Shown here piece by piece: positions 6,908-22,151 of a stretch of 22,151 bases of DNA (positions are counted from its first letter, which is position 1; every line of letters begins with the position of its first letter). Source of the stretch: a virus. The notes under the pieces were generated by a model. The model saw only the letters and a list, made by a program, of their open reading frames with translations, was not told the origin of the DNA and made no database searches. The position numbers were made by a program, and so were the translations under genes. The DNA lies in the IMG/VR virus record IMGVR_UViG_3300032331_000548, positions 1-22,151 of that record, one strand, 5' to 3'.

Positions 6908-8395
6908 ATGCAAGTATCTAAGTTTAAAGAGTTTATAAAAGAAGCAAGACAGCAAGATGAAACCGATCCTATTACGGTCGTTGTCATTAGCAAATCTTCT
7001 CCTAAAGTAAGACGACAGAAAACTGGTAACAAGAAATCTAAAAAAGAAATTACAGTAAGTTTTGTACAAAAGTCTTGTGCTAAAAGAAAAATACCTTGTT
7101 ACATAATCAATACAAAATTCTCAATTATCACAGATAAAGACGAAGGAAAAAATACATTAACTATCTATAACTATGATGGTGAAGATGGTGAACAAACATT
7201 CATTGGTAAGAATACAGTAGTTATTACAAGAGCAGGTGCCATAGAAGATGAAGCAGGTCTTTCTCTAATATCAGCATTTCAAAACTCTGGTGCGTTTATG
7301 TTAAACACCAGATCAGCAATGTTAACATGCGATAACAAACTAACTTCGGCATTGTTATTTGAAAAGTTTAATATACCAACTCCAAAAACTGCCTTCATAT
7401 CAAACGAAAAGAATTTAGATAACGCATTAAAACTTGTAGGTAATAAGTTTCCAGTTATCGTAAAGACATTAACAGGCACACAAGGTATTGGTGTTGTTAA
7501 AGTTGATAGTTATGATTCATTAGTATCAGTAGTACAAGCATTATTTAAACATGACGCTGAATTATTATTACAAGAATATATGCCAACAGATTCAGATATA
7601 AGAACTTTTGTTGTAGATAATAAAATATTTGCATGTACAAAACGTGTTAAAAAATCTGGAGAGTTTAGATCAAACGTACATAGAGGTGCTGTTGCTGAAC
7701 CATATAAATTATCTGACGAAGAAATAGAAATTGTTTTAAGAACAGCAAGAGCATCAAAAGCATATCTTGTAGGTATAGATCACATTACATATAAAGGGAA
7801 AATTTATGTATTAGAAGCAAATGGTTCACCAGGAACCGGAGCTGATTATGAAGGATATCATTATGAAGATTATATAGATACACCAAACACAATAGGACCG
7901 ATTAAAGGAAGTCAATTAGTTGATAACGTTATAGAATATATTTCAAATAGGAAACATTGGGATAGACAATCAATCGTAGAAGTTGGTTACCTAGAAACAA
8001 TAGAATTATCCTCTGTAGGCAAAGTAAGAGCAAAATTAGATACAGGTAACGGGGCGGAAACTTGTGCTTTACATGCTGAAGAAGTGGAAGTAAAAGATGG
8101 TAAAGTTACTTGGAAGTATGATGGTAAAAAACACACCAGTAAATTAGAAGGTTATCATAAAATTTTTAGGGCTAATACAAATGATGGTGAAGGAGAAAAA
8201 AGACCAGTTGTTAAATTAGATTTAACGTTTAACGGCTTTACATACAAAGATGTGTCGTTTGGACTTGATGAAAGAAAAAGATCAGCGTCTGATGTATTAT
8301 TAAATAGAGATATTATTAGAAAAATGAATGCTTCAGTTAACCCAAATAGAGAATTTGTATTAAGTAGAAGAATAAAACCTATTGATAAAAAGTAA
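6908..8395 (+). CDS. RimK-like ATP-grasp ligase fused to RimB-like retropepsin domain
   Basis: This 495-residue protein has two enzyme domains. Residues about 105-350 are an ATP-grasp ligase of the RimK type: FPVIVKTLTGTQGIGVV (181-197) is the nucleotide-binding loop, LLLQEYMP the adenine-contact region, and YVLEANGSPG (300-309) the metal-binding end. RimK adds glutamates to a protein C-terminus. Residues about 355-495 match the putative ATP-dependent zinc protease/RimB-like retropepsin family, with VRAKLDTGNGAETCALHA containing D378-T-G. The start MQVSKFKEFIKEARQQ resembles the T4 capsid-targeting tag, with I10-K-E12 as a possible prohead-protease site. It follows regA directly and precedes a 2OG-like oxygenase by 2 nt. 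The target protein is unknown. Confidence 0.8.
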   Translation: MQVSKFKEFIKEARQQDETDPITVVVISKSSPKVRRQKTGNKKSKKEITVSFVQKSCAKRKIPCYIINTKFSIITDKDEGKNTLTIYNYDGEDGEQTFIGKNTVVITRAGAIEDEAGLSLISAFQNSGAFMLNTRSAMLTCDNKLTSALLFEKFNIPTPKTAFISNEKNLDNALKLVGNKFPVIVKTLTGTQGIGVVKVDSYDSLVSVVQALFKHDAELLLQEYMPTDSDIRTFVVDNKIFACTKRVKKSGEFRSNVHRGAVAEPYKLSDEEIEIVLRTARASKAYLVGIDHITYKGKIYVLEANGSPGTGADYEGYHYEDYIDTPNTIGPIKGSQLVDNVIEYISNRKHWDRQSIVEVGYLETIELSSVGKVRAKLDTGNGAETCALHAEEVEVKDGKVTWKYDGKKHTSKLEGYHKIFRANTNDGEGEKRPVVKLDLTFNGFTYKDVSFGLDERKRSASDVLLNRDIIRKMNASVNPNREFVLSRRIKPIDKK

Positions 8396-12399: not shown

Positions 12400-12936
12400 A
12401 TGATTAATTTTCCTAATAAAAAATATAAAGTAATTTATGCTGATCCGCCTTGGTACTTCAAATCATACAGTAAAAAAGGTGAAGGAAGAAATGCTACACA
12501 ACATTATGACTGTATGAAGATTGAAGATATTAAAAATCTACCAGTTAAAGATATATCAGAAAATGATTCAACACTATTAATGTGGGTAACAGATCCTTTT
12601 TTAAAAATATCACTTGAAGTTATTGAGTCTTGGGGATTCAAATATAAAACTGTGGCATTTACCTGGGTGAAAACCAATAAAAAAAGTCCAGGATATTTTA
12701 AAGGTTTGGGTTATTGGACAAGAGCTAATCCTGAAATGTGTTTGTTAGCAACTAAAGGAAAACCAAAAAGAATAAACAATGGAGTAGATCAACTTGTTGT
12801 TTCTAAATTAAGAGAACATTCAAGAAAACCTGATGAAGTTTATGAACGTATTGAAAAATTATTAGAAGGACCTTATATAGAATTGTTTGCTCGTAATAAA
12901 AAAGATAATTGGTCTAGTTGGGGAAATCAAGTATGA
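12400..12936 (+). CDS. MT-A70-type N6-adenine methyltransferase
   Basis: This 178-residue protein has VIYADPPWYF with the catalytic DPPW tetrad at residues 15-18. It continues with STLLMWVTDPFL, FKYKTVAFTWVKTNK, ANPEMCLLATKGKPKR, SRKPDEVYERIEKL and IELFARNKKDNWSSWGNQV. This is the complete MT-A70 architecture, methylating N6 of adenine in DNA (or RNA in eukaryotic members) from S-adenosylmethionine. No target-recognition domain is attached. In phages it usually protects DNA from restriction or marks it. Its ATG comes one base after the small membrane protein and its stop overlaps the next gene (ATGA). No cognate restriction enzyme is adjacent. Confidence 0.93.
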   Translation: MINFPNKKYKVIYADPPWYFKSYSKKGEGRNATQHYDCMKIEDIKNLPVKDISENDSTLLMWVTDPFLKISLEVIESWGFKYKTVAFTWVKTNKKSPGYFKGLGYWTRANPEMCLLATKGKPKRINNGVDQLVVSKLREHSRKPDEVYERIEKLLEGPYIELFARNKKDNWSSWGNQV

Positions 12937-14036
12937 AAACTTTAACTAAAGAACAAGCACTACATTGTGCTAAAATATTTAAAGATTATTTTGGCAATTT
13001 TAATCGTATAGATGATTACATGAGAGATCAAAAACTGGCCTCTATACAAAACATTCCTGCTGGATTACCAGGCATGAGTTTAGAAGATGATTTGTTTTCT
13101 GATTTTACAATGTCTCCTAATGATATGAAATTAGAAGTATTAGAAATAGATAATGTAACTTGGGACACTTGTATTAATATGATATCAAGCCATAGTAACA
13201 TGGTAAATATTCCTGGTAAAAATTTAAAACTAGCAGTTAAAGAAATGACTACTAACAAGTTTGTAGGGTTTATAAGATTGGCATCACCAGTTATTAATAT
13301 GAAACCTAGAAACGAAATGTTAGGCAACATACCCGATCTATCGCATTTTAATAAAACGGCTATTATGGGGTTTGTAATAGTACCATCTCAACCTTTTGGT
13401 TATAATTATCTTGGTGGTAAACTATTGGCAGCTATTTGTTGTAGTCATAAAGTAAGAGACATGATGAATAAGAAGTATGATATGAACTTATGTTTATTTG
13501 AAACTACAAGTTTGTATGGTAACAGTAAATCATCAAGTCAGTATGATGGTATGAAACCTTATGTTAGATATAAAGGTCTAACTGATAGTGATTTTATTCC
13601 TATGTTACATGGTAAACCTTATGAACAATTAAGAGACTACGTTGAGAACATAGTAGGTGATCTAGTAAAAGAGGATGCGTCTAGTAAGAAGTTAAAGTTA
13701 ACTAATGCAATTATAGGTTTAATTAAACGATCTTTAAAAGACGACAAGACAGAACTAGAACATTTTAATAAAGTTATCAACAACGCAAAAGACTTGACAG
13801 AACAGAAAAGATACTATATAAGCCATTATGGTATCAAAAATTATATTGATATAGTAAATGGTAAGACAGATACTATAATTAAAGATGATACCTATGATAA
13901 ATTTGAACTAGAAAGTATTATAGAATGGTGGAGAAAGAAAGCGGCCATTCGTTATGAGACTTTAAAGAAAGAAAATAGAATAAGAAATGAACTTGAACTT
14001 TGGACCAAAAATTGTTCAATACAAATCATACGATAA
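12933..14036 (+). CDS. DruA/GNAT-like protein of unknown function
   Basis: The 367-residue protein starts at the ATG overlapping the methylase stop (ATGA); a TTG at 12918 would add only MGKSS. Residues about 110-215 show FVGFIRLASPVINMKPR, then NKTAIMGFVIVPSQPFGYNYLGGKLLAAIC, then NLCLFETTSLYGNSKSSSQYDG. The order and the pattern GGKLLA...LFETT..YG resemble DUF4338, the DruA component of Druantia, and more broadly GNAT-like folds. The match is from memory and is remote. The C-terminal third is charged and helical. The neighbouring methyltransferase hints at a DNA-modification role, but it may equally be a phage-specific protein. Confidence 0.45.
   Translation: MKTLTKEQALHCAKIFKDYFGNFNRIDDYMRDQKLASIQNIPAGLPGMSLEDDLFSDFTMSPNDMKLEVLEIDNVTWDTCINMISSHSNMVNIPGKNLKLAVKEMTTNKFVGFIRLASPVINMKPRNEMLGNIPDLSHFNKTAIMGFVIVPSQPFGYNYLGGKLLAAICCSHKVRDMMNKKYDMNLCLFETTSLYGNSKSSSQYDGMKPYVRYKGLTDSDFIPMLHGKPYEQLRDYVENIVGDLVKEDASSKKLKLTNAIIGLIKRSLKDDKTELEHFNKVINNAKDLTEQKRYYISHYGIKNYIDIVNGKTDTIIKDDTYDKFELESIIEWWRKKAAIRYETLKKENRIRNELELWTKNCSIQIIR
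13794..13822 (+). promoter_or_regulatory. Possible internal promoter upstream of speD
   Basis: TTGACA (13794-13799), 17-bp spacer, TATAAG (13817-13822), within the DruA-like coding region. The sequence quality is high (11 of 12 consensus bases). However, it would leave a leader of nearly 300 nt before speD, and no start codon with a good ribosome-binding site follows immediately. It is either a real internal promoter or chance in AT-rich DNA. Confidence 0.35.
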
Positions 14037-14046
14037 AGATTTATTT

Positions 14047-14066
14047 TATATAAATAACTTTATATA
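14047..14066 (+). promoter_or_regulatory. T4-type late promoter motif within a perfect AT hairpin, upstream of speD
   Basis: TATAAATA, the T4 late promoter element, lies at 14049-14056. It is embedded in a perfect 8-bp inverted repeat (14047-14054 with 14059-14066, loop TAAC). If used as in T4, transcription would start near 14062 and give a leader of about 50 nt, containing GAGGAG at 14082-14087. The hairpin could alternatively be a protein-binding palindrome or a weak mRNA structure ending the preceding message. Confidence 0.45.
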
Positions 14067-14110
14067 TATTGATGTGAACGTGAGGAGTTAATTTTAAAAT
14101 TTACAGAGAG

Positions 14111-14587
14111 ATGGAACAGAACAAACTTTTAATACACAAACATTTAATTATTAGAGCCGAAGTGAAAAACCCACCAAAAAACGAAGAACAACTTACAAAC
14201 TGGTTAAAAGATTTTATTACTTTCATAGACATGAAAGTTTTAATGGGACCTTATGTTAGATATTGTAATACAGTGGGTAACAGAGGCATTACAGGTGTGG
14301 CCGTTATTGAAACAAGTCATATAGCAATGCACGTTTGGGACGAAACAGATCCTGGCATTATGCAGTTTGATGTTTATAGCTGCTCAGAATTTGATCCATA
14401 TAAGATTGCAGATAAATTACAAGCAGACTTTGAAGTAACTAAATTAGATTATAAGTTCCTTAATAGAGAAACTGAATTGAAACCTATAAGGTTAAAGAAA
14501 GATACAATGAAAAACGTGGAAACTCATAAATATGCAAATAGTAATAATCAACAGACTCAACAACCCACCCTATTTAATATCTCCTAA
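14111..14587 (+). CDS. speD: S-adenosylmethionine decarboxylase-like (SpeD family)
   Basis: This 158-residue protein resembles the prokaryotic pyruvoyl-dependent AdoMetDC family: GVAVIETSHIAMHVWDE and IMQFDVYSCSEFDP. Matching the Thermotoga-type enzyme, the self-cleaving serine would be S69, with H74 five residues on and C91 as the proton donor. The residue before the serine is Thr (E-T-S-H) where the family normally has Glu (ESH). SpeD makes the aminopropyl donor for spermidine; related phage and bacterial paralogues have shifted to arginine or ornithine. GAGAG lies immediately before the chosen ATG and a stronger GAGGAG 24 nt upstream has no suitable ATG. The C-terminal 25 residues are low complexity. 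Confidence 0.8.
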   Translation: MEQNKLLIHKHLIIRAEVKNPPKNEEQLTNWLKDFITFIDMKVLMGPYVRYCNTVGNRGITGVAVIETSHIAMHVWDETDPGIMQFDVYSCSEFDPYKIADKLQADFEVTKLDYKFLNRETELKPIRLKKDTMKNVETHKYANSNNQQTQQPTLFNIS

Positions 14588-18899: not shown

Positions 18900-18928
18900 T
18901 TGACATTTATATAGAAGTGTGATATAGT
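18900..18928 (+). promoter_or_regulatory. Sigma70-like promoter upstream of the KxDG gene
   Basis: TTGACA (18900-18905), 17-bp spacer, TATAGT (18923-18928), with TGTGA before the -10. The surrounding 18893-18929 is a near copy of 2133-2169. Predicted start is near 18935, giving a leader of about 60 nt. Confidence 0.75.
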
Positions 18929-18935
18929 ATAAATA
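18928..18935 (+). promoter_or_regulatory. T4-type late promoter motif overlapping the early-type promoter
   Basis: An exact TATAAATA begins on the last base of the TATAGT -10 box. A late start would fall near 18941. The pair suggests that the same gene can be read by both the host-type and the late phage polymerase. Confidence 0.5.
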
Positions 18936-18994: not shown

Positions 18995-20215
18995 ATGTTT
19001 AGTTTTAAAGGATTTGTAACGAAGGGTACCAATACCCACCTAGAACACTTAGAAGATAGTATTATAGACCAAGGCTCAAAAGGTGGTCGTAATGCGGTCA
19101 ATTTTCTAAAGTCAATCAAAAAAATGCTTGCAGGTAATGTAGGCGGCCGACTTAACGTAACTGTTAAATGGGACGGTGCACCAGCAGTTATCTGTGGAAT
19201 TAATCCTGAGAACGGCAAATTCTTTGTAGCAACTAAATCTTTATTCAACGTAAATCCAAAAATCAATTATTCTACAGGCGACATTATGAAAAACCATGAT
19301 GGAGTTTTATCACAGAAACTTATTGTTTGTTTAAGAGAATTAGCTAAATTAGGCATTACAGGAATTTTACAAGGTGATCTTTTATTTACAAAAGGTGATG
19401 TTAAGACTACAACAATAGATGATAAAGAATATTATACATTTACACCAAATACAATTACATATGCAGTACCAGTTAATAGTGCAATAGGTCAAAGAGTTGC
19501 ACGTGCAAGATTAGGTATTGTATTTCATACACTATATTCAGGTAAAGATATTAAACATCTTTCAGCAAGTTTTGGAAGTGTTGCTGGTTTGCCTAAATCA
19601 TCTTCTATTTTTATTACAGATGCAACATATAGAGATACATCAGGTGCAGCCACATTTAATAAATCAGAAATGTCCCAATTTGATAATATTATTTCCATGG
19701 CAGAAGGCTCATTACAAAAAGCGGCACCAATGCTAGATATACTTAACGTTGCAGATTCTTTAGCAGTAGGTTATAAACTTAAATCATTCTTCAATCATTA
19801 CATTAGAAATTCGCAAGGCGATATGGCTAAAGTAAAAGATTTAGTAGATATGTTTAGAGTGTATTATAATAATATGTTACAACAAGAAGTTGAAGCAGTA
19901 AGTAAAGAAGAAACCAAAAACAAATATAGAAAAATTAGAGATGGTGGTTTAAACTTTATTGATAGAAATCAACAAGCATTATACTTTGCAATTGCAAGTT
20001 GGATATCATTACAACGTGCAAAGAATTTTCTAATAAGAAAAATGAATCAAATACAAAGCATTGGCCAGTTCATAAGAACACCAGATGGATTTAAAGTAAC
20101 TAATCCAGAAGGTTATGTGGCCGTTGATAGAGTTAAAGGTGCTGTTAAACTAGTTGATAGATTAGAATTTAGCAGAGCAAACTTTCAAATTGCTAAAGAC
20201 TGGTTAAAAGGATAA
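18995..20215 (+). CDS. KxDG nucleotidyltransferase-like protein (ligase superfamily motifs)
   Basis: This 406-residue protein contains motifs in the order seen in covalent nucleotidyltransferases (DNA/RNA ligases, capping enzymes). Motif I is VKWDG with K58, a candidate for AMP or GMP attachment. A motif III-like GILQGDLLF spans 123-131, motif IV-like EGYV 372-375 and motif V-like VKLV 384-387. A long helical insertion of about 200 residues separates III from IV, which is unusual, so the assignment is tentative. I recall DUF-type homologues in marine T4-like phages without known function. The start MFSFKGFVTKG resembles the phage tag FxxF-[IV] but lacks the final I-x-E. It has its own double promoter and precedes DUF6321 by one base. 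Confidence 0.55.
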   Translation: MFSFKGFVTKGTNTHLEHLEDSIIDQGSKGGRNAVNFLKSIKKMLAGNVGGRLNVTVKWDGAPAVICGINPENGKFFVATKSLFNVNPKINYSTGDIMKNHDGVLSQKLIVCLRELAKLGITGILQGDLLFTKGDVKTTTIDDKEYYTFTPNTITYAVPVNSAIGQRVARARLGIVFHTLYSGKDIKHLSASFGSVAGLPKSSSIFITDATYRDTSGAATFNKSEMSQFDNIISMAEGSLQKAAPMLDILNVADSLAVGYKLKSFFNHYIRNSQGDMAKVKDLVDMFRVYYNNMLQQEVEAVSKEETKNKYRKIRDGGLNFIDRNQQALYFAIASWISLQRAKNFLIRKMNQIQSIGQFIRTPDGFKVTNPEGYVAVDRVKGAVKLVDRLEFSRANFQIAKDWLKG

Positions 20216-20216
20216 T

Positions 20217-20495
20217 ATGAAAACATTTAAACAATTTATAAACGAAGATGCCAAAGGTCTAAAAAGTCCTAGTGGAGGATTAACACAAAAAGGTAGAGAT
20301 TATTATAATCGTAAAGATGGTAGTAATCTAAAAGCACCTGTAACAAAAAAACCATCTGAATTAAAAAAAGGCAGTAAGGCATACAATAGACGTAAGTCAT
20401 TCTGTGCTCGTATGTCTGGTAATCCAGGCCCAATGAAAGACGATAAAGGAAGACCAACTCGTAAAGCATTGGCATTAAAAAAGTGGAATTGTTAA
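20217..20495 (+). CDS. DUF6321-type small basic protein with capsid-targeting-like N-terminus
   Basis: This 92-residue protein has the family pattern PSGGLTQKGRDYYNRKDGSNL, KKPSELKKGSKAYNRRKSFCARMSG and a terminal ALKKWNC. These are features I associate with DUF6321, a strongly basic family with conserved cysteines that may bind DNA or metal. The first ten residues MKTFKQFINE are almost the T4 internal-protein targeting peptide MKTYQEFIAE, with I8-N-E10 as a prohead-protease-type cleavage site. If cleaved in the head it would become a basic, DNA-associated internal protein. It starts one base after the previous stop and its TAA overlaps the kinase ATG (TAATG). Confidence 0.75.
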   Translation: MKTFKQFINEDAKGLKSPSGGLTQKGRDYYNRKDGSNLKAPVTKKPSELKKGSKAYNRRKSFCARMSGNPGPMKDDKGRPTRKALALKKWNC

Positions 20496-21181
20496 TGAAA
20501 TCATTTGAACAAATACTTTCAGAAGGTTTATATGATCCAGCTATCTTTAAGGCTTTCTTTTTAGCAGGTGGGCCAGGTTCCGGCAAATCATTTGTCGCAA
20601 GAAACGTATTTACAGGTACAGGATTAAAGTTTGTAAATTCAGATACATTCTTTGAAAAAAGTTTAAGAGATGCTAATTTGTCTTTAACATTACCTGACGA
20701 AGAACAATATTTTAGAGATATGTTAAGAACACAAGCAAAGGCAAAAGCAGAAAATCAGGCCGCTCTTTATGTAAAAGGTAGATTAGGTTTAGTAATAGAT
20801 GCAACAGGCAGAGATTTTAATATAATACAAAGTCAAGCAAGTCAACTAAAACAATTAGGATATGATTGTTATATGGTATTTGTAAATACAAGTTTAGAAG
20901 TTGCATTAGAAAGAAATGCTAAAAGAGAAAGAACAGTGCCAGAATATATTACAAGAACATCTTGGCAAGGTGTACAAAACAACATTGGTAAATTCCAAAA
21001 CTTTTTTGGCATGGGAAATTTTATAGTAGTAGATAATAATAAATCAGAACAAGAATTAGTTACAATGACTATGAACAAAGTAAACACCGTAGTAAGAAGA
21101 TATTTAAATACACCTATTAAAAGTTATATTGCAAAAAGATGGATGGCAAAAGAAAGAATAGCGAGAAGAAAAGATGTTTAA
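20495..21181 (+). CDS. P-loop kinase (zeta toxin / polynucleotide kinase-like) with capsid-targeting-like N-terminus
   Basis: The protein has 228 residues from the ATG at 20495, which overlaps the previous stop; an upstream in-frame ATG at 20483 would add MELL and hide the conserved tag. Walker A is AGGPGSGKS (24-32). D50 (VNSD) and VIDATGRD (100-107) fit the base and Walker B region of small P-loop kinases such as polynucleotide kinase and zeta-type enzymes. R140-N-A-K-R144-E-R resembles the lid. The substrate may be a nucleic acid 5' end, a nucleotide or a nucleotide sugar. MKSFEQILSE matches the T4 targeting-peptide pattern with L8-S-E10. It overlaps the following gene by 8 nt. Confidence 0.75.
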   Translation: MKSFEQILSEGLYDPAIFKAFFLAGGPGSGKSFVARNVFTGTGLKFVNSDTFFEKSLRDANLSLTLPDEEQYFRDMLRTQAKAKAENQAALYVKGRLGLVIDATGRDFNIIQSQASQLKQLGYDCYMVFVNTSLEVALERNAKRERTVPEYITRTSWQGVQNNIGKFQNFFGMGNFIVVDNNKSEQELVTMTMNKVNTVVRRYLNTPIKSYIAKRWMAKERIARRKDV

Positions 21182-22151
21182 ATTAATTAATGAAGCAGTA
21201 ATAGATATACCTAGACGCACATACGCCAAAGATATATTTGATAATGCAGATACAGAAAATCCAAAACTAAAACAATCTGTATTAGATATTATTAATGCAC
21301 AACTAAAAGAATTTGAAAAACATTATCCTATTAAAAGATATAGTCTAGTTGGTTCCAGCATTACAAAAAACTATAGAGATGATGCAGACTTAGATATAAA
21401 TGTTTTATTTGATGTTGCACCGGCAGATAGAGAAGCTATTAGACTTAAACTATCACACGAGTTAAGAGGCATCAATGGTAAAGTAATACCAGGAACTAAA
21501 CACCCAATTAACTATTATATCATAACAGATCCAAATGTAAAAGAAACTAACGATAAAATGGCTGATGGAGTATTTGATATTAAAAACAATACTTGGTTTA
21601 CAAAACCAAAAGAATTTAAATTTGATGCTAATAGATATGCGGCCGACTTTGAAAGAAAAGTAAAAGAGATAGATGTAATAGAAGGAGAATTAAAAAGAGA
21701 TATCATTGATTACAAAGAGTTAACAGAATTAAATCCTGATGATGTTTTAAATCTACAAGAAATTGTAAATGAAAAGATATCTAAGATAGAAGATGATATT
21801 AAAAATTTAGTTGACATTGGTAATACAGTATTAAAAGATAGACGTGATGCTTTTGCTACTGATATGACACCAGAAGAAATAAAAACATTTGGTAAAAAAA
21901 ATTTATTGCCTAAGAATGTTATCTACAAGATGTTAGAGAAATATCATTATTTAAGATTGTATCATCAATTAAAAGATATATTAGATGACGGAGAAATAAC
22001 AGACGCAGAAATACGTTCTATACAGACTGAAGATAAAGAAGATGATACAGTAATGATGTATAAACTAACAGGTAAAGCAATGAAGGCTATGCCTGGTTCT
22101 ATAATACAAAAAGAAATTATAAAACAATTAAATGTTTACAGAAAAAAATTA
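21174..22151 (+). CDS. Pol-beta-type nucleotidyltransferase (3' truncated by window)
   Basis: A frame open from the ATG at 21174 to the end of the window (326 codons, no stop); the true end is outside. YSLVGSSITKNYRDDADLDINVLF has the minimal nucleotidyltransferase signature hG-S-S followed by D72-L-D74, which binds metal and NTP, as in CCA-adding enzymes, 2'-5' oligoadenylate synthetase-like and antibiotic nucleotidyltransferases. Later parts are helical and acidic (about residues 165-220). The start MFKLINEAVID contains I5-N-E7, a prohead-protease-type site in a shortened targeting-like peptide. It overlaps the kinase by 8 nt, so both are probably translated together. The substrate is unknown. 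Confidence 0.7.
   Translation, partial: MFKLINEAVIDIPRRTYAKDIFDNADTENPKLKQSVLDIINAQLKEFEKHYPIKRYSLVGSSITKNYRDDADLDINVLFDVAPADREAIRLKLSHELRGINGKVIPGTKHPINYYIITDPNVKETNDKMADGVFDIKNNTWFTKPKEFKFDANRYAADFERKVKEIDVIEGELKRDIIDYKELTELNPDDVLNLQEIVNEKISKIEDDIKNLVDIGNTVLKDRRDAFATDMTPEEIKTFGKKNLLPKNVIYKMLEKYHYLRLYHQLKDILDDGEITDAEIRSIQTEDKEDDTVMMYKLTGKAMKAMPGSIIQKEIIKQLNVYRKKL

What the first reader, a model, noticed from the sequence alone, without database searches (positions are those of the whole stretch)
20217..22151. Consecutive enzymes carry T4 capsid-targeting-like N-termini
Seen: MKTFKQFINE (DUF6321), MKSFEQILSE (kinase), MFKLINEAV (nucleotidyltransferase) and, elsewhere, SKFKEFIKEA (RimK fusion). 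Known: T4 internal proteins use the ten-residue peptide MKTYQEFIAE, removed by prohead protease gp21 after [I/L]-x-E. The downstream domains are unrelated, so the shared start is not common ancestry of whole proteins. With late promoters nearby, this suggests a set of enzymes packaged in the head and injected with DNA: a kinase, a nucleotidyltransferase, a basic protein and a protein-modifying ligase/protease.
Basis: partly seen in the sequence, partly recalled or inferred. Interest (0 to 1): 0.78.

Follow-up and report, generated by a model that had tools for sequence, protein, structure and literature searches.

The report
Enzymes tagged for phage head packaging
Several unrelated enzymes of an uncultured T4-like phage start with the same kind of short peptide that phage T4 uses to load proteins into its head, which suggests, though nothing here proves it, that the phage carries a small enzyme kit into its host along with its DNA.

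Summary
A T4-style rule (aromatic at E-6, hydrophobic at E-3 and E-2, Glu) marks 3 of 30 window genes; shuffled N-termini give 0.14 on average, never 3. Across related contigs, 5 of 127 gene families carry it in at least 40% of distinct N-termini (expected 0.07): DUF6321, RimK fusion, kinase, an adenylate kinase and a small protein. In RimK, F6 and E12 are invariant in 26/26 nonredundant homologs, followed by a hypervariable linker before the domain. These positions correspond to T4 IPIII residues 4 and 7 (targeting), 8 and 10 (processing) (PMC9026906). Relatives encode a gp21-type protease, and their gp23 site aligns with T4's (FLTE|A, FLSE|A, FLNE|A). A late promoter precedes the operon in 73/79 homologous loci but none of the replication genes tested. 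T4-type capsid-targeting sequences on a set of enzymes is thus well supported by sequence for DUF6321 and the kinase, good for RimK (no late promoter of its own), weakest for the nucleotidyltransferase (only LINE|A). Packaging, cleavage and injection are untested; the sequence rule gives concrete predictions.

The parts
20217..20246 (+). capsid-targeting-like N-terminus of the DUF6321 protein, MKTFKQFINE, predicted cut before D11
   Evidence: sequence; rule met in 13 of 13 distinct N-termini of the family
20217..20495 (+). DUF6321 protein, 92 aa, basic
   Evidence: Pfam PF19846, E 1.9e-27
20495..20524 (+). capsid-targeting-like N-terminus of the kinase, MKSFEQILSE, predicted cut before G11
   Evidence: E and the following G invariant, F/Y and L/I conserved in 29 nonredundant homologs; predicted as a low-confidence short helix ahead of the kinase domain
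20495..21181 (+). P-loop kinase, polynucleotide-kinase/zeta-toxin type
   Evidence: AAA_33 E 2e-14; best Foldseek matches are polynucleotide kinases, E 4e-7
21174..21194 (+). N-terminus MFKLINE of the nucleotidyltransferase; weak member (only [I/L]xE)
   Evidence: sequence; orthologs MRFKDFLKE|S
21174..22151 (+). pol-beta-type nucleotidyltransferase, cut by the contig end; relatives are 698-929 aa with a cytidylyltransferase-like second domain
6908..6943 (+). capsid-targeting-like N-terminus of the RimK fusion, MQVSKFKEFIKE, predicted cut before A13
   Evidence: F6 and E12 invariant in 26 of 26 nonredundant homologs, hypervariable linker after it
6908..8395 (+). RimK ATP-grasp ligase fused to a PF05618 protease-like domain
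18995..19024 (+). DUF6267 N-terminus MFSFKGFVTK: targeting-type F4 and F7, but K10 instead of E10
18995..20215 (+). DUF6267 protein, first gene of the late operon
   Evidence: Pfam PF19782, E 3e-115
18928..18935 (+). T4-type late promoter box TATAAATA, 67 bases before DUF6267
   Evidence: present in 73 of 79 homologous loci

Best explanation
The N-termini are T4-type capsid-targeting sequences. Proposed steps: (1) late in infection a late promoter drives the operon DUF6267-DUF6321-kinase-nucleotidyltransferase (promoter shown in sequence; activity inferred). (2) The amphipathic peptide, aromatic at E-6 and hydrophobic at E-3, binds the prohead scaffold core and carries the attached enzyme inside (inferred from T4 genetics). 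(3) The gp21-type protease cuts after [I/L]-x-E, leaving new N-termini at D11, G11, A8 and A13 (site conservation shown; cleavage inferred). (4) The enzymes are ejected with the DNA and act at once in the new host, most likely on nucleotides or nucleic-acid ends (polynucleotide-kinase-type kinase, nucleotidyltransferase, in relatives adenylate kinase) or on host proteins (RimK-like ligase) (inferred). DUF6267 of this clade would be targeted but not cut.
For: Motif excess over shuffles in the window and in relatives G001-G004; 5 of 127 families against 0.07 expected; conserved positions match the T4 residues for targeting (4, 7) and processing (8, 10); hypervariable linker after the RimK tag; in relatives the tag is an N-terminal addition to an otherwise normal adenylate kinase; gp21-type protease in 4 of 6 longer relatives and a gp23 site aligned with T4; late promoter in 73 of 79 loci; kinase homologs in RB16 (MKSFKDFVSLDEA) and in a virion-protein-rich block of Atu_ph07 (MKWNDLNEA).
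Against: No virion proteome of this or a near phage; window lacks its own gp21 and gp23; no motif excess in HTVC008M and Mosig; RimK has no late promoter of its own; the window's nucleotidyltransferase fits only partly; the kinase tag is followed directly by highly conserved domain residues, so part of its conservation may belong to the domain.
Confidence: 0.7

Rival explanations
1. The peptide is a docking helix for a shared phage or host partner (replisome, membrane or scaffold) that is not cleaved and does not lead to packaging.
For: RimK lies in the replication block without a late promoter; the pattern is amphipathic; DUF6267 keeps the hydrophobic residues without Glu.
Against: Glu is invariant in RimK, kinase and adenylate kinase tags although a docking helix would not need it; it coincides with the protease rule and with the gp23 site; the operon is late.
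Confidence: 0.17
2. Mixed case: only the late-operon proteins (DUF6321, kinase, nucleotidyltransferase, DUF6267) are packaged; the RimK start resembles the tag for another reason.
For: Late promoter only before the operon; only RimK lies outside the cluster.
Against: RimK shows the cleanest tag of all; a RimK homolog is annotated as structural protein in YerA41, whose virions were analysed by LC-MS/MS, though without a similar N-terminus.
Confidence: 0.1
3. Chance similarity in AT-rich genomes rich in K, F, I, N and E.
For: The nucleotidyltransferase start alone could be chance.
Against: Composition-matched shuffles and internal Mets; invariant positions across homologs.
Confidence: 0.03

Closest known systems
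T4 internal proteins IPI, IPII, IPIII and their capsid targeting sequence (Mullaney and Black 1996, as described in PMC9026906)
   Same: 10-19-residue N-terminal peptide; same residue classes at positions 4, 7, 8 and 10; predicted cut after [I/L]-x-E; attached to unrelated mature proteins
   Different: Here on recognisable enzymes and domains of unknown function in an uncultured phage lineage; packaging and cleavage not demonstrated; RimK tag shifted by two residues
T4 Alt ADP-ribosyltransferase (virion enzyme trimmed by gp21, PMC5694885)
   Same: Enzyme carried in the head and cut at ITE/LTE sites
   Different: Unrelated enzyme; its propeptide is six residues plus a C-terminal one; here several different enzymes are involved
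SPN3US / phiKZ-type processed ejection proteins (PMC5694885, PMC10052503)
   Same: Prohead protease removes N-terminal propeptides; many proteins are carried in the head
   Different: Mostly long propeptides and a different cleavage rule (AxE)

Membership tests
T4-type capsid targeting sequence | Short N-terminal peptide with the residues needed for targeting (4 and 7) and processing (8 and 10) | tested here: met
   DUF6321 F4 F7 I8 E10; kinase F4 I7 L8 E10; RimK F6 F9 I10 E12; not met by the window's nucleotidyltransferase (lacks the aromatic) nor by DUF6267 (K10)
T4-type capsid targeting sequence | Same peptide on proteins with unrelated mature parts | tested here: met
   Five families with unrelated domains
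T4-type capsid targeting sequence | Phage has a gp21-type prohead protease that cuts after [I/L]-x-E | tested here: inconclusive
   Protease present in 4 of 6 longer relatives and gp23 site conserved; the window itself is a fragment without head genes; cleavage not observed
T4-type capsid targeting sequence | Late expression of the cargo | tested here: inconclusive
   Late promoter box before the operon in 73 of 79 loci, none before RimK in 83; expression not measured
T4-type capsid targeting sequence | Protein found in the virion, trimmed, and injected | not testable with these tools
   No virion proteome of the lineage; indirect support only

The most novel reading that the evidence does not exclude
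This phage lineage packages and injects a multi-enzyme kit for nucleotides or nucleic-acid ends (polynucleotide-kinase-like kinase, nucleotidyltransferase fused to a cytidylyltransferase, adenylate kinase in relatives, perhaps a ligase-like DUF6267) together with a RimK-type protein ligase. The larger members would be polyproteins cut by the prohead protease also at domain junctions (Glu at KIKE|A, SIDE|A, PITE|G just before the second domain). The kit would act before any phage gene is expressed, for example repairing RNA damaged by host defences.
Probability: 0.18. Interest if true: 0.85.

Novelty: new variant of a known kind. Interest (0 to 1): 0.6.

Why it matters
Capsid targeting is known mainly from T4's small internal proteins and Alt. 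Extending it to several enzyme families in uncultured aquatic phages would give a sequence rule for predicting injected cargo from metagenomes, and a first functional placement for families of unknown role (DUF6321, DUF6267). Injected proteins are the first to meet host defences (T4 IPI blocks GmrSD), so these enzymes become concrete candidates for counter-defence or host takeover.

Tried and rejected
Peptidase S77 search in the window: none, because the window is a fragment without head genes. DUF6267 against solved structures by profile: no match; its AlphaFold2 model is poor (pLDDT 68, C-terminus below 50) and Foldseek gave nothing credible, so a ligase assignment rests on motifs read by eye only. 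HTVC008M and Mosig: genome-wide motif counts are not above shuffles, so the tag set is lineage-specific. UvsX (MSDFLKDIIKE) met a relaxed pattern in some homologs; set aside as ordinary homology, not a tag. A methyltransferase-like ORF in G001 (MISDEDFKFLLQE) met the rule and is probably chance. In the held library only the T4 review turned up for 'capsid targeting sequence' together with 'cyanophage'; that does not show that nobody has described this. Homologs of DUF6267 in cyanophage P-HM1 lack the tag.

Full report
The window is a 22,151-base record of an uncultured T4-like phage. It carries a replication block (gp45, gp44, gp62, RegA, DNA polymerase, UvsX, helicase by content and order) followed by the genes DUF6267, DUF6321, kinase and nucleotidyltransferase. 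The nearest cultured relatives by these genes are the Kyanoviridae phages Mosig, HTVC008M and Melnitz, at 30-53% protein identity.

Observation. The four N-termini are as reported. The kinase starts at the ATG at 20495, which overlaps the DUF6321 stop codon. The residue numbers D11, G11, A8 and A13 are correct. Pfam gives unrelated domains.

Chance. I fixed a rule modelled on T4: aromatic at E-6, hydrophobic at E-3 and E-2, Glu, with Met at most a few residues before. In T4 it finds IpII, IpIII, gene 61.1 and a defective homing endonuclease. In the window it finds 3 of 30 genes (shuffled mean 0.14; 0 of 500 shuffles reach 3). In the 165-kb relative G001 it finds 4 of 209 genes (mean 0.46; 0 of 500), three of them in the cluster after the helicase. 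Internal Mets match in 0 of 96 (window) and 0 of 729 (G001) cases. HTVC008M and Mosig show no excess, so the tag set depends on the lineage. I then grouped 2,828 proteins from about 160 related loci into families. Of 127 families with at least 4 members, five carry the rule in 40% or more of distinct N-termini, against a null of 0.07 (maximum 1 in 300 runs) that keeps conservation within families: DUF6321, RimK fusion, adenylate kinase, a small protein (MKYDDLIQE) and the kinase. The next three are DUF6267, the MKTFKQHIKE protein and the nucleotidyltransferase; the families listed after them score zero.

Selection on the peptide. In RimK (26 nonredundant homologs) F6 and E12 are invariant, position 9 is F/Y, position 10 is I/L/F, position 11 is the most variable of the peptide, positions 13-20 form a hypervariable linker, and the domain starts at about 21. 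In the adenylate kinase of relatives F4 and E10 are invariant, position 7 is F/Y and position 8 is I/L. The adenylate kinase fold begins only after the tag: Pfam ADK matches from residue 19, and other phage adenylate kinases align from about residue 15. In the kinase the Glu is invariant, but the domain sequence that follows is conserved too, so this case is less clean. In T4 IPIII genetics assign targeting to residues 4 and 7 and processing to residues 8 and 10, and Asp at position 10 blocks processing (PMC9026906). The same positions are conserved here. DUF6267 in the window clade keeps F4 and F7 but has K10, which predicts targeting without cleavage; other relatives have E10.

Protease. Four of six longer relatives carry a gp21-type S77 protease. 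Their gp23 N-termini align with T4 around its processing site: T4 FLTE|AEIGG, G001 FLSE|AAP, G006 FLNE|AAP, Mosig FLSE|AAP, HTVC008M FLGE|IAN (the T4 site is from general knowledge). G006 is a relative of the window phage by its RimK (66% identity).

Timing. TATAAATA lies 67 bases upstream of DUF6267 in the window and near the same place in 73 of 79 homologous loci, but in none upstream of gp43, gp41, gp44, gp45, gp62, regA, uvsX or RimK. So the operon has a late promoter, and RimK has none of its own.

Other phages. A kinase of the same family in enterobacterial phage RB16 starts MKSFKDFVSLDEA. In Agrobacterium jumbo phage Atu_ph07 the kinase domain lies in a 778-aa protein starting MKWNDLNEA, next to five proteins that start M[KR]W[EQ]QL[TN]E. 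By accession order it is gp53, inside the CDS 31-76 block in which MS of virions found 29 proteins (PMC6102473); whether gp53 is one of them I could not check. A RimK homolog in YerA41 is annotated 'structural protein' in a phage whose virions were analysed by LC-MS/MS (PMC7354516), but that list also holds many replication enzymes, and its N-terminus does not show the tag.

Enzymes. The kinase resembles polynucleotide kinases and zeta toxins. The nucleotidyltransferase is fused to a cytidylyltransferase-like domain in relatives. A Glu stands just before that second domain in the variants listed, and in about two thirds of copies it fits [I/L]xE. That could mean further cuts between domains, but it is speculative.

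Verdict. The shared start is real, non-random, separable and conserved at the residues that define T4 capsid targeting sequences. Head targeting and trimming is the most likely function (0.7), firmest for DUF6321 and the kinase, less certain for RimK and the nucleotidyltransferase. Packaging, cleavage and injection are inferred, not shown.

Noticed in passing
window 18995-20215: DUF6267 shows ligase-like motifs by eye (VKWDGAP, QGDLLF, NPEGYVAVD, VKLVDR), which suggests a nucleotidyltransferase/ligase fold; profile search and structure model gave no support.
   Followed up: partly
L189:18966-19130 (T4 gene 61.1): T4's own gene 61.1 product starts MKTFKEFIKED, a near-perfect capsid-targeting sequence on a 54-residue charged protein: a candidate further T4 internal protein.
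   Followed up: partly
L186:1-6590 (Atu_ph07 39484-46418): Six consecutive Atu_ph07 genes share the start M[KR]W[NEQ][DQ]L[NT]E; each has a YRGM motif that recalls ADP-ribosyltransferases (by eye), and one is fused to the kinase. Possibly another packaged effector set.
   Followed up: partly
window 12918-14036: A DruA/DUF4338-like protein is encoded between the N6-methyltransferase-like gene and the SpeD-like gene.
   Followed up: no
window 14049-14587: A gene that looks like S-adenosylmethionine decarboxylase (by eye) has a late promoter box upstream in 22 of 22 loci, within a replication block that otherwise has none.
   Followed up: no
L009:17766-20130: Genes downstream of the window's end in a near relative start MKRFKSYIIE, with an internal MKSFKQHIKEA, and MKKFKNFRE and MTKKTFKSFKEF: further possible tag carriers.
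   Followed up: partly
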